IMG/VR virus record: IMGVR_UViG_3300050821_004459 | Span: 1 to 64,000 of that record | Reading direction: 5' to 3' (one strand) | Source: a virus | Length of the DNA: 64,000 nt | Part shown: piece after piece, positions 3,619-21,006 of the stretch | Position numbering within the stretch: the stretch's first letter is position 1 | Layout: every line of letters starts with the position of its first letter | The notes under the pieces: generated by a model | Databases searched by the model: none | Told to the model about the DNA's origin: nothing | Seen by the model: only the letters and a program-made list of their open reading frames with translations | Translations under genes and position numbers: made by a program

Positions 3619-3866
3619 ACCGAGATGAACTGACCAAGATGGTCCCGATCCCGCTGCCGTCCGTCGGAAATGTTGCTATCGTGGTCAGCGACGGCACCGG
3701 CTATATATCCTCAGAAGTGCCACGCGACGAGCTAGTCCAGGATGGCGCAGTGCAGGAGGCACTTAACTACCTTGATGCTGAGCTGATCGATGTGGATCGG
3801 CCGAATGCCCGGCTACGCGCATCGATGGAAGATGTCATCAAGTTCAGGGAGGGCCGCGATGGCTAG
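3615..3866 (+). CDS. Hypothetical protein (83 aa), GTG start
   Basis: GTG start overlapping the TGA of the previous gene (GTGA). The sequence predicts a small alpha/beta domain, with an N-terminal VGNVAIVVSDGTGYISSEVP region and an acidic helix EALNYLDAELIDVD. No family recognised. Confidence 0.55.
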   Translation: MNRDELTKMVPIPLPSVGNVAIVVSDGTGYISSEVPRDELVQDGAVQEALNYLDAELIDVDRPNARLRASMEDVIKFREGRDG

Positions 3867-4010: not shown

Positions 4011-4868
4011 ATGCCAGGTTTTGAAGTACGTTTCATCCCGGTGGATCACATCCACCCAAACCCGGATAACCCCCGGCATGAGGCCGGCAACGTATCGGCC
4101 CTGTCCAGGTCAATCGACGAGAGGGAGCTGGAGCAGGCTATTGATGTTATCCCCGCGCCACAGTTCGGCGGGGATCACTTCATGATCGTGGACGGGTTCC
4201 GGCGCTGGTCAGCTGGCCGACACATCCGTCGCTCGCTTCCCTGCCACATCCGGTACCCGCGCCCGGAAGAGAACATTCCGATGATGGCTGTCCTTATGGG
4301 CCTGGTTACGGACGCCCACAAGGAGCCGCTCAGCGCCATGGAGCGGGCCGAGGCATACGGCAGGCTCCACAACGAGTTCGGCCTGACGCAGACGCAGATC
4401 GCGAAGCAGACCGGATTCACGACGACCACCATCGGCTACTACATGTCGCTCCTGGAGCTGTCGGAAGACTCCAAGCAAAAGGTGCGCGAGGGCAAGATGT
4501 CGGCCGACAGGGCCGTGTCTGCGGTCCGAGAGCACCGGCAGAAGAACAGGTCCAAGGAGGGCAAGAAGCCGGTCAACCTCGGCTGGGACCCGGACCCGTT
4601 CAACCCGACTCACCCCCAGAACAAAAAGGCAAAGGTGATGTGTGCGGCTCGCGAACACGGTGGCCGTCGCCGGTACGCTGGTGCGTGCCATGCCTGCTGG
4701 GAGATGGCAATCCGTCAGGATCAGACCACGATCGACACGGCCGACTATGGCGATGCGGGCCTGGCCATCCCTTTCGTGTCCCCAGCCCCGCTGATGCCGA
4801 TCTCGCCTGATGGCGACATCCGAACCGACTGGCACCCCACAAACAACGGCAATGGGAGGAGGGCGTAA
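4011..4868 (+). CDS. ParB-like nuclease-fold protein with HTH and C-terminal zinc-binding motif
   Basis: 285 aa. Residues about 5-90 match the ParB/Srx-like domain: IPVDHIHPNPDNPR, a self-directed SALSRSIDERELEQAIDV segment, and the hallmark DGFRRWSAG (ParB box-like G-x-RR). Residues 115-150 form a helix-turn-helix (GLTQTQIAKQTGFTTTTIGYYM). Near 215-235 a C-x3-H-x10-C-x2-C pattern may bind zinc. Phage ParB-like proteins can act as DNA-binding partition or transcription factors; some have NTPase or nuclease activity. No ParA partner is seen nearby, so a regulatory role is as likely as segregation. Confidence 0.85.
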   Translation: MPGFEVRFIPVDHIHPNPDNPRHEAGNVSALSRSIDERELEQAIDVIPAPQFGGDHFMIVDGFRRWSAGRHIRRSLPCHIRYPRPEENIPMMAVLMGLVTDAHKEPLSAMERAEAYGRLHNEFGLTQTQIAKQTGFTTTTIGYYMSLLELSEDSKQKVREGKMSADRAVSAVREHRQKNRSKEGKKPVNLGWDPDPFNPTHPQNKKAKVMCAAREHGGRRRYAGACHACWEMAIRQDQTTIDTADYGDAGLAIPFVSPAPLMPISPDGDIRTDWHPTNNGNGRRA

Positions 4869-18077: not shown

Positions 18078-18152
18078 GGCGGGGTCGAGCAGTATGGTCG
18101 CTCAGCAGACTCATAATCTGCATACACGCCAGTTCAAATCTGGCCCCCGCTA
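18078..18152 (+). tRNA. tRNA-Met (anticodon CAT)
   Basis: Full cloverleaf: acceptor GGCGGGG/CCCCGCT (one G-U), D stem GAGC/GCTC, anticodon stem GCAGA/TCTGC with loop CTCATAA (anticodon 18112-18114), T stem GCCAG/CTGGC with loop TTCAAAT, discriminator A at 18152. CCA is not encoded. The loop suits elongator Met; a CAT tRNA could also be an isoleucine tRNA if its C is lysidine-modified. Confidence 0.9.
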
Positions 18153-18220
18153 CGATCTCTGGGCTCGGCGCAGGACGCTGCGCGGTCGGGTAGAGATGCT
18201 GTATCCGCGAGGACAGTGTT

Positions 18221-18254
18221 GGCCGGGAGTAGTTCTCCAGGGGTACTCCCGGCC
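18221..18254 (+). terminator. Perfect 11-bp hairpin after tRNA-Met
   Basis: GGCCGGGAGTA at 18221-18231 and TACTCCCGGCC at 18244-18254 with a 12-nt loop. It lies between the tRNA and the MazG-like gene and may stop or process the tRNA transcript. Confidence 0.6.
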
Positions 18255-18281
18255 ATCAGAAAATGTCACAGAGGAGGTAAA

Positions 18282-18644
18282 ATGAGTGAGGTAAGAGATC
18301 CGGCTTCCGACCAGCCCCTGCCGACGCCCGGCAAGGAATACGTTCAGGAATACATGATACGCGAACTGAACGATGATATGGGGATGGACGATGAACTCCG
18401 CGATGCAATCATCCGGAGCATCGAGGCTCGCCGCGAGCTAGGCATCAGCAAGTACGGGGTTCCCCTGCAGACTTACAATGGCAGGGATACCCTAATTGAC
18501 GCGCTCGATGAGGCTCTCGACTGTCTCACTTACCTCACTCAGCTAGAAATGGAGGACGGGGATACTGGTAGTCTACTAGAGGCTGCGCGATCTATCGTCA
18601 TACGTCTTACCAAACGTCGTATGTGGCGTGGCGACAAAATCTAG
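18282..18644 (+). CDS. MazG-like nucleotide pyrophosphohydrolase-type protein
   Basis: 120 aa; ATG at 18282 with GAGGAGG eight bases before. The segment GISKYGVPLQTYNGRDTLID followed by ALDEALDCLTYL resembles small phage all-alpha NTP pyrophosphatases, in which the acidic D-x3-EALD helix coordinates Mg. Such enzymes cleave NTPs or alarmone-like nucleotides. It stands between two tRNA genes. A second, clearer MazG-like gene is at 35765. Confidence 0.55.
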   Translation: MSEVRDPASDQPLPTPGKEYVQEYMIRELNDDMGMDDELRDAIIRSIEARRELGISKYGVPLQTYNGRDTLIDALDEALDCLTYLTQLEMEDGDTGSLLEAARSIVIRLTKRRMWRGDKI

Positions 18645-18665: not shown

Positions 18666-18737
18666 GGGGAGGTAGCTCAATGGATAGAGCTTTGGCTTCC
18701 GAAGCCAAGAGTGTGGGTTCAAATCCTGCTCTCCCCA
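18666..18737 (+). tRNA. tRNA-Arg (anticodon CCG)
   Basis: Cloverleaf with acceptor GGGGAGG/TCTCCCC, D stem GCTC/GAGC, anticodon stem TTGGC/GCCAA with loop TTCCGAA (anticodon 18699-18701), T stem GTGGG/CCTGC with two wobble pairs, loop TTCAAAT, discriminator A. CCA not encoded. It would read CGG codons, common in GC-rich actinobacteria. Confidence 0.9.
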
Positions 18738-18739
18738 CC

Positions 18740-18815
18740 GGAGCGTACGGGTATTGCTCGACGGGCTTTGTCCCTGCTGGAGTATCCGCCGGGCATCTTG
18801 CTGCCCGTACGCTCC
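18740..18815 (+). ncRNA. Long hairpin with perfect 12-bp stem downstream of tRNA-Arg
   Basis: GGAGCGTACGGG at 18740-18751 pairs exactly with CCCGTACGCTCC at 18804-18815. The 52-nt loop contains GC-rich segments. It begins two bases after the tRNA, so it may be co-transcribed and act in processing or termination. Confidence 0.5.
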
Positions 18816-18822
18816 CCGGACC

Positions 18823-18889
18823 GGAGGGTGCTGTGGGCGTAGTGGAGTCCGCCCTGCCACACGGGATAGTGTGGCAAGCAGCATCCTCC
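18823..18889 (+). ncRNA. Three-way-junction RNA candidate
   Basis: Closing stem GGAGGGTGCTG/CAGCATCCTCC (18823-18833 with 18879-18889, one G-U) encloses two hairpins: GGGCG/CGCCC (18835-18839, 18850-18854) and GCCACAC/GTGTGGC (18856-18862, 18869-18875). Three mutually consistent helices in 67 bases are unlikely by chance. Possibly a phage small RNA or a processing signal in the tRNA transcript. Confidence 0.5.
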
Positions 18890-18911
18890 CTAAAGTTGCT
18901 GCGGGCGCCCA

Positions 18912-18967
18912 GGGGTGGGTAGAGAGCAGCATGGGATGACGGTTCAATTCCGTCCCTGCTCACCCCA
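18912..18967 (+). ncRNA. tRNA-like minihelix (acceptor and T-arm only)
   Basis: A 7-bp acceptor-like stem GGGGTGG/TCACCCC (18912-18918, 18960-18966, last pair G-U) with an A at the discriminator position, and a perfect T-arm GACGG-TTCAATT-CCGTC (18938-18954) with the tRNA-like TTCAA loop. Between them GCAG/CTGC (18926-18929, 18956-18959) continues the stack. No D arm or anticodon arm is present. It could be a decayed tRNA or a deliberate tRNA mimic. Confidence 0.45.
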
Positions 18968-18986
18968 CATAAGTCGGGAGATTGAT

Positions 18987-19858: not shown

Positions 19859-20048
19859 CCCGGTACCGTGCCATTACTGCAACACCATGGTAAGTGTAGA
19901 TCCAAACGGCACGGTATACGCTACGCATCCGAGGCATCCTTCGCCTTGGTTTTGCTGGGCAAGTGCATCCGGGAAGCATCACGTAGCCAAGGATGAATCA
20001 GATGACAAAGCAGATAATCGACCCAAGTCAACTGATAGTAACGACTAG
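19851..20048 (+). CDS. Small CHYC zinc-finger-like protein (65 aa)
   Basis: Starts within the previous gene. CHYCNTMVSVDPNGTVYATH and a later C and HH give a C-x2-C-x15-H-x10-C-type site. The C-terminal 20 residues are polar and overlap the start of the nuclease gene by 56 bases, which is unusually long. Confidence 0.5.
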   Translation: MSSPVPCHYCNTMVSVDPNGTVYATHPRHPSPWFCWASASGKHHVAKDESDDKADNRPKSTDSND

Positions 20049-21006
20049 CTCGCGCTCTGCTTTCAGACGCTGTCCGCAGCGCTGGTACTGGCAGTACGTC
20101 ATAGGTTACCGCGAGCGGCGCGCTAGTGATGCTCTCTGGTTCGGGATCGGTATTCACGAGGCTCTGGCTGAATGGTACCTGAAAGGTTTTAAACGTGGAC
20201 CGCATCCCGCCGATACCTTCGCGGCCTGGCATGGCGAGGAAGTCCGAGAAATTCGTGCATCTTATGCTGATCGCGATCGGGGAGAGATGGATGAGGCTAA
20301 ATATGAAAACTCACTCGATCTCGGCGTAAGTATGCTTGAGGGATACATTGACGAGTACGGCAGAGACCCAGACTGGGTAGTAATTGCAATCGAACGGCCA
20401 TTCAAGGTCCGCGTAATCAAAGATGGCAAAGTAATTGCCTACTTCATGTCAACGTGGGATGGGGTCTACCGCGACCGCCGCGATGGGCGGATCTACCTCA
20501 TGGAGCACAAGAGCGCGGCCCAGATTCAGCTCGCCTATCTTGAGCTGGATGACCAGGGTGGAATCTACTGGGCGCTAGCCGGTTCTATTCTGCGCTCTGA
20601 GGGTGTCCTGAAAGAGGGCGAGGAGATCGCAGGTATCACATACAACTTCCTGCGGAAGTCCATGGAGGATGAGCGGGCCCGGAATTCTGGCGGAGAGTAT
20701 CTCAATAAGAATGGCACCGTCAGCAAGAAGCAGCCCCCGGACCGTTACGTCCGCGAGCTAGTGGAGCGCTCAGCGCGCGAGCGCAAGACTCAGCTTGATC
20801 GGCTAGCAGATGAAGTGTGGCTCATGAAGGGCATGATAGAGGGCACCGTCCCGGTGACAAAGAGCACCACTAAAGAGTGCTCATTCTGCCAGTTCTTCAT
20901 GGCGTGCAAGATGCACGAGCGAGGTAGCAACGCATGGAAGGAAGTCATGAAGGCAGACTTCGATGTCGTTGATCCATTCGACAGGTACGTCAAGAGCGCA
21001 GCGTGA
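19993..21006 (+). CDS. PD-(D/E)XK nuclease of the Cas4/RecB-like exonuclease family
   Basis: 337 aa. N-terminal SSRSAFRRCPQRWYWQYV supplies the first Fe-S-type cysteine, GIGIHEALAEWY is motif I, STWDGVYRDR and YLMEHKSA are motifs II and III (D...E-x-K), and ECSFCQFFMACKMH gives the C-x2-C-x5-C cluster that completes a 4Fe-4S site. This is the Cas4/AddB/RecB nuclease arrangement. It probably resects DNA ends for the neighbouring Sak4-like recombinase. No cas genes or CRISPR array are nearby, so a stand-alone recombination role is more likely. Confidence 0.85.
   Translation: MNQMTKQIIDPSQLIVTTSSRSAFRRCPQRWYWQYVIGYRERRASDALWFGIGIHEALAEWYLKGFKRGPHPADTFAAWHGEEVREIRASYADRDRGEMDEAKYENSLDLGVSMLEGYIDEYGRDPDWVVIAIERPFKVRVIKDGKVIAYFMSTWDGVYRDRRDGRIYLMEHKSAAQIQLAYLELDDQGGIYWALAGSILRSEGVLKEGEEIAGITYNFLRKSMEDERARNSGGEYLNKNGTVSKKQPPDRYVRELVERSARERKTQLDRLADEVWLMKGMIEGTVPVTKSTTKECSFCQFFMACKMHERGSNAWKEVMKADFDVVDPFDRYVKSAA

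What the first reader, a model, noticed from the sequence alone, without database searches (positions are those of the whole stretch)
18740..18967. Structured RNA tract after tRNA-Arg ending in a tRNA-like minihelix
Right behind tRNA-Arg come a 12-bp hairpin, a three-way junction with three consistent helices, and then a 56-nt element with a 7-bp acceptor-like stem, an A discriminator and a perfect T-arm with TTCAATT loop but no D or anticodon arms. The last element could be a tRNA mimic that engages tRNA-processing enzymes, EF-Tu or a nuclease as decoy, or a decayed tRNA.
Basis: partly seen in the sequence, partly recalled or inferred. Interest (0 to 1): 0.72.

Follow-up and report, generated by a model that had tools for sequence, protein, structure and literature searches.

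The report
Phage tRNA-linked pseudoknot RNA with palindrome
Next to its tRNA genes this virus carries a compact, tRNA-sized folded RNA found in at least 22 other viral contigs, and the way its bases change together suggests that two copies of the RNA clip to each other, so it looks like a new family of viral RNA rather than a broken tRNA.

Summary
The structured tract after tRNA-Arg is real. The 12-bp hairpin and three-way junction recur, with compensatory changes, in a close relative. The terminal element is not a 7-bp acceptor minihelix or a decayed tRNA. It is the 3' part of a ~75-nt pseudoknot RNA (18898-18967): strand a (GCTGC), an 8-nt perfect palindrome, an 11-bp helix P, AGA, strand a' (GCAGC) pairing back to a, a T-arm, P's 3' strand, then ACA.

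A covariance model built without the window finds the window (63.9 bits, E 5e-11). I collected 23 distinct members in viral contigs. In the 22 aligned, 99.4% of pair cells are standard and 20 of 24 pairs show double changes. The palindrome is perfect in all 23, with 12 different sequences; adjacent self-complementary bases cannot pair within one chain, so two copies probably pair. Seven members start 1-3 nt after a tRNA. Rfam 15 has no match.

Best reading: a new phage small-RNA family, made with or beside tRNAs and homodimerising through the palindrome. Its function is inferred, not shown. P varies from 9 to 12 bp and three members lack the T-loop, which argues against strict tRNA mimicry. 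In three phages the element lies in frame inside recT-like genes, unexplained.

The parts
18666..18739 (+). tRNA-Arg (ccg); replaced by tRNA-Ile (gat) in L002
18740..18815 (+). long hairpin directly behind tRNA-Arg, 12-bp stem 18740-18751/18804-18815
   Evidence: stem kept with changed sequence in L002
18823..18889 (+). three-way junction: P1 18823-18833/18879-18889, P2 18835-18839/18850-18854, P3 18855-18862/18869-18876
   Evidence: all helices kept in L002
18898..18902 (+). pseudoknot strand a (GCTGC)
   Evidence: pairs with a' in all 22 aligned members, double changes at 3 of 5 pairs
18903..18910 (+). 8-nt perfect palindrome GGGCGCCC, proposed dimer interface
   Evidence: perfect in all 23 members, 12 different sequences
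18912..18922 (+). helix P, 5' strand (11 bp)
18923..18925 (+). AGA linker between P and a'; AGA in 20 of 22 aligned members, though GAGA was a search term for many of them
18926..18930 (+). pseudoknot strand a' (GCAGC)
18938..18954 (+). T-arm: GACGG-TTCAATT-CCGTC
   Evidence: replaced by a non-T hairpin in L031, L067, L091
18956..18966 (+). helix P, 3' strand
18967..18969 (+). ACA, in the position of a tRNA discriminator plus CC(A)
   Evidence: sequence; most members have ACC or ACA here

Best explanation
The 3' end of the tract (18898-18967) is a member of a previously unlisted family of ~75-nt phage noncoding RNAs. SHOWN BY COVARIATION: the RNA folds as a pseudoknot (a:a' around the 5' strand of helix P), with P capped by a short arm that is usually a canonical tRNA T-arm. 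STRONGLY SUGGESTED: two copies pair through the 8-nt palindrome, because its self-complementarity is kept through 12 sequences, including the central dinucleotide, which cannot pair within one chain. INFERRED: the RNA is co-transcribed with a neighbouring tRNA, its 5' end is set by tRNA 3' processing where the two abut, and its 3' ACC end may be handled by tRNA enzymes. INFERRED, WEAKLY: the homodimer acts in trans as a small structured scaffold or decoy that engages a factor recognising the T-arm elbow (T-arm modification enzymes, EF-Tu-type or tRNA-directed nucleases) during infection. The hairpin and three-way junction between tRNA-Arg and this RNA are additional structure specific to the window/L002 lineage.
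For: Model R1, built from four relatives without the window, scores the window 63.9 bits, E 5e-11, L002 5e-9, L091 1e-8 and the two non-T-arm members near 1e-6. On 22 members, 99.4% of 521 pair cells are standard against 70.3% in shuffles, 20 of 24 pairs show double changes, covariation score 0.753 against 0.178 shuffled and 0.06-0.10 when slid. Palindrome halves match in 22/22 against a shuffle mean of 2.8, maximum 11 of 20000; L206 adds a 23rd. The same logic supported intermolecular palindromes in OLE and GOLLD (PMC12286853). Each of the records searched whole that has a match has exactly one copy. A tRNA on the same strand ends 1-3 nt before the element in L031, L067, L130, L134, L142, L156 and L206, and 98-157 nt before it in window, L002, L022, L023. 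Genes downstream differ between phages, which argues for a trans role.
Against: No expression, probing or dimerisation data. Search patterns demanded GAGARYRGC and a T-arm for most later members, so the constancy of AGA, a' and the T-arm is partly enforced; the palindrome, strand a and P were not enforced there, but the palindrome was a search term for L025 and L091. Alignment A7 was fitted to the P and arm structure and leans towards it. In L131, L137 and L169 the element is in frame inside recT-like genes, odd for a stand-alone RNA. G-U pairs are only about 3% of cells, so a single-stranded DNA structure is not strictly excluded. No promoter or terminator was recognised in the window.
Confidence: 0.6

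Rival explanations
1. A DNA-level element: a structured single-stranded or cruciform site used in replication, recombination or packaging, whose symmetry reflects two DNA copies or two protein protomers.
For: It lies in frame within recT-like genes in L131, L137, L169, beside the PD-(D/E)XK exonuclease in the window group and just before the terminase genes in L130 and L170 (terminase called by eye from the translation); one copy per record.
Against: The canonical RNA T-loop is kept in most members, tRNAs abut it on the same strand, some G-U pairs occur, and the palindrome changes sequence freely, which a sequence-specific DNA-binding protein would not tolerate. Gene neighbours vary.
Confidence: 0.15
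2. A true tRNA mimic (acceptor/T-arm minihelix) acting as a decoy or substrate for RNase P, the CCA enzyme, EF-Tu or a tRNA-cutting defence nuclease.
For: Canonical T-arm, A-CC/CA tail and tRNA neighbours.
Against: P is 9-12 bp plus one unpaired C, so the T-loop to 3'-end distance varies and never equals the 12 bp of tRNA; three members lack a T-loop. The pseudoknot and palindrome are not needed for such a mimic.
Confidence: 0.13
3. A cis-acting leader element (riboswitch, translational or processing signal) of the gene that follows.
For: In the window, L022, L023, L031 and L067 an open frame with a plausible ribosome site starts 20-40 nt downstream.
Against: Downstream genes are unrelated between phages; in L025, L134 and L156 another tRNA follows; in three members the element is inside a coding frame.
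Confidence: 0.09
4. A decayed tRNA or a chance fold.
For: Local resemblance to D-loop and T-arm sequence (GGTAGAG, GGTTCAATTCC) in the window.
Against: Covariation in 22 members and no intact tRNA at this place in relatives; Rfam's tRNA model does not match the element even at E up to 5.
Confidence: 0.01

Closest known systems
GOLLD and ROOL RNAs (phage/prophage ncRNAs near tRNA islands)
   Same: Phage-encoded, next to tRNA genes, structured with pseudoknots, function unknown; GOLLD has a self-complementary loop that covaries as a palindrome (PMC12286853).
   Different: About 75 nt against 600-800+ nt; no Rfam match at gathering score in the window or the member loci scanned; different secondary structure; T-arm cap.
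tRNA (RF00005)
   Same: T-arm with TTCRANY loop, closing helix ending in A-CC/CA, similar length, adjacent to tRNAs.
   Different: No D-arm or anticodon arm; P 9-12 bp; pseudoknot; palindrome; not matched by the tRNA model.
OLE RNA dimer and retroviral dimer initiation sites
   Same: Palindrome-mediated pairing of two identical RNAs; in OLE the palindrome covaries (PMC12286853). The retroviral comparison is from general knowledge.
   Different: Unrelated sequence, structure and context.
Phage T4 RNAs C and D (stable RNAs of unknown function in the T4 tRNA cluster, beside tRNA-Arg; from memory, not tested)
   Same: Small stable structured RNAs of unknown function beside phage tRNA genes.
   Different: No sequence comparison made here.

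Membership tests
tRNA / tRNA-like minihelix | Match to the tRNA covariance model | tested here: not met
   Rfam matches tRNA-Arg and tRNA-Met but not 18896-18970
tRNA / tRNA-like minihelix | 7-bp acceptor stacked directly on a 5-bp T-stem (12-bp ruler) | tested here: not met
   P is 11 bp here, 9-12 bp in the family, plus one C between
tRNA / tRNA-like minihelix | Canonical T-loop | tested here: inconclusive
   Present in the window and most members; absent in L031, L067, L091; partly enforced by search patterns
tRNA / tRNA-like minihelix | CCA addition or aminoacylation | not testable with these tools
   -
GOLLD / ROOL | Match to the Rfam covariance model | tested here: not met
   No match at gathering score in the window or in member loci
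GOLLD / ROOL | Location near phage tRNA genes | tested here: met
   ARAGORN tRNA within 240 nt in 12 of 23 members
GOLLD / ROOL | Covarying self-complementary loop (homo-oligomer signature) | tested here: met
   23/23 perfect palindromes, 12 sequences
GOLLD / ROOL | Physical homo-oligomerisation | not testable with these tools
   -
tmRNA | Match to the tmRNA model | tested here: not met
   No match

The most novel reading that the evidence does not exclude
A separate class of phage small RNA: a tRNA-sized pseudoknot that homodimerises through a freely drifting 8-nt palindrome, is released by tRNA processing, can be carried even within the coding frame of recombinase genes, and acts in trans on a host tRNA-handling or defence factor.
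Probability: 0.4. Interest if true: 0.88.

Novelty: new variant of a known kind. Interest (0 to 1): 0.74.

Why it matters
RNA-RNA homodimers supported by evolutionary covariation are rare in nature. At ~75 nt this one is small enough to synthesise, probe and crystallise at once, so the open question of what tRNA-island phage RNAs such as GOLLD and ROOL do, and why they self-associate, becomes testable on a minimal system. It also shows that 'blank' DNA beside phage tRNAs hides conserved RNAs that tRNA finders and Rfam do not annotate.

Tried and rejected
A first pattern on the window/L002 sequence found only L002. R1 match in G035/L110 (18 bits): no palindrome, no tRNA, rejected as chance. Pattern hits L087, L092, L094, L096-L102 are unrelated sequence; L127, L190, L148, L146 and other hits at 17-26 bits are tRNA-like (several long-variable-arm tRNAs) or lack P, not members. 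The genome-contig scan gave four stretches, none a member. A pattern search of 396 genomes of one phylum (centred on a Streptomyces genome) found one hit, not a member by model R2. BLAST of member cores against 50,697 annotated phages found only T-arm similarities; eight of these regions were fetched and are not members. Considered an intramolecular hairpin for the palindrome: impossible with a 2-nt loop; its right half pairing with the GG after a' fails in L031. Literature searches found no description of this RNA, in a library without bioRxiv and most subscription journals.

Full report
OBSERVATION. The window is part of a 95-kb virus record. ARAGORN and Rfam find tRNA-Met(cat) at 18078-18153 (Rfam below gathering score only in the local scan) and tRNA-Arg(ccg) at 18666-18739, and nothing else structured. 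The terminal stem is 11 bp, not 7.

CLOSE RELATIVE. The exonuclease at 19993-21006 (PF12705, phrog_1218) led to L002 (86% identical protein). There the same place holds tRNA-Ile(gat), then a hairpin with a different stem sequence, then the three-way junction, then the terminal element. All helices are kept through sequence change.

MORE DISTANT RELATIVES. A profile search with four exonucleases gave 66 loci. Reading downstream of their tRNAs showed the terminal element again in L022, L023, L031 and L067 with wholly different helix sequences; a descriptor scan added L025.

INDEPENDENT TEST. A covariance model (R1) of four T-arm members, with the window left out, found the window at 63.9 bits (E 5e-11), L002 (5e-9), L091 (1e-8) and the non-T-arm members L067 and L031 (1e-6 and 2e-6); the next score in 729 kb was 16.8 bits. 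Patterns without any palindrome term and R1/R2 added L089 and 14 more (L160 carries the same sequence as L141). Total: 23 distinct members.

COVARIATION. On 22 aligned members 99.4% of 521 pair cells are standard (70.3% shuffled; 35-52% slid) and 136 cells have changes on both sides (34.5 shuffled). Every aligned member parses as a(5)-palindrome(8)-[A or AN]-P(9-12 bp)-AGA-a'(5)-short link-arm-C-P'; the automatic parse of the arm slipped in a few rows (for example the window and L170), but the T-arm can be read by eye in them and in A7. The palindrome is perfect in 23 of 23, with 12 sequences, among them GGGCGCCC, GGGATCCC, GTGCGCAC, CGGTACCG, GAGCGCTC, GGATATCC and GCCCGGGC; dealing the halves out anew gives 2.8 matches on average, 11 at most. 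All 12 form self-duplexes of -10.8 to -19.1 kcal/mol by ViennaRNA against -8.7 on average for shuffled 8-mers. Adjacent bases at the centre of a palindrome cannot pair within one chain; Kretsch et al. used the same argument for OLE and GOLLD (PMC12286853). I therefore infer a homodimer.

ASCERTAINMENT. GAGARYRGC and the T-arm were search terms for L089 and for the 14 distinct members, and the palindrome was a term for L025 and L091. Of the eight members found without a T-arm term, five have a canonical T-arm and three (L031, L067, L091) another hairpin there. The T-loop is therefore common but not essential, and its frequency in the family is not known.

CONTEXT. A tRNA on the same strand ends 1-3 nt upstream in seven members and 98-157 nt upstream in four; L025 has one 128 nt downstream. 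Member loci range from 44% to 69% GC, so the hosts are diverse; no host was established here. Neighbouring genes vary: exonuclease (window group), terminase and portal (L130), terminase (L170), other tRNAs (L134, L156) (gene names are my reading of translations, not database matches). In L131, L137 and L169 the element lies in frame in the proline/alanine-rich C-terminal region of RecT-like annealing proteins (PF03837 for L169; phrog_4171 for L131 and L137). Each matching record has one copy. None was found in 396 genomes of one phylum or by BLAST in annotated phages, but these tests were limited in sensitivity.

MECHANISM. Shown by covariation: pseudoknot, helix P, cap arm. Strongly suggested: pairing of two copies. 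Inferred: co-transcription with tRNAs, and a 5' end created by tRNA 3' maturation where the two abut; in L170 a TATAAT lies 8 nt before the element, seen by eye only. Weakly inferred: a trans-acting role on a T-arm-recognising factor. Against strict tRNA mimicry: P varies from 9 to 12 bp, and there is always an extra C.

KNOWN OR NEW. No Rfam 15 family matches. The nearest kind is the tRNA-island phage RNAs GOLLD and ROOL, which share context, pseudoknots and self-association but are about ten times longer and unrelated in structure. I call it a new variant of that kind rather than a new category, because its function is unknown and each of its features has a precedent.

Noticed in passing
18154-18262: A second structured tract directly after tRNA-Met, conserved in L002 (180-300) and resembling tracts after tRNAs in L022 (about 4055-4160), L003 (5860-5960) and L028; core like CTGC..TGGATG.CAGTCCGGGGCCGGGAG plus a GC-rich hairpin. 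No Rfam match.
   Followed up: partly
L131 core 3776-3849 (-), L137 814-886, L169 4851-4924: The RNA element lies in frame inside the C-terminal region of recT-like genes in three phages.
   Followed up: partly
L209 1500-1600 (Mycobacterium phage Rey), L211 995-1070 (Microbacterium phage Floof): Apparent circularly permuted tRNA: the T-arm and acceptor 3' half precede the acceptor 5' half and D-arm; in Rey the acceptor, anticodon and T stems all pair by eye.
   Followed up: no
L002 1270-1336: A shortened tRNA-like sequence (GCCGGAG...CTCCGGC-ACCA) directly after the element, without a proper anticodon arm.
   Followed up: no
L003 5701-5779, L028 5366-5472, L089 upstream of the core: Oddly long or four-base-anticodon tRNA-like genes in relatives, possibly tRNAs with insertions.
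   Followed up: no
18282-18644: Small protein with matches only to PHROGs of unknown function (phrog_7609 and others), between the two tRNA tracts.
   Followed up: partly
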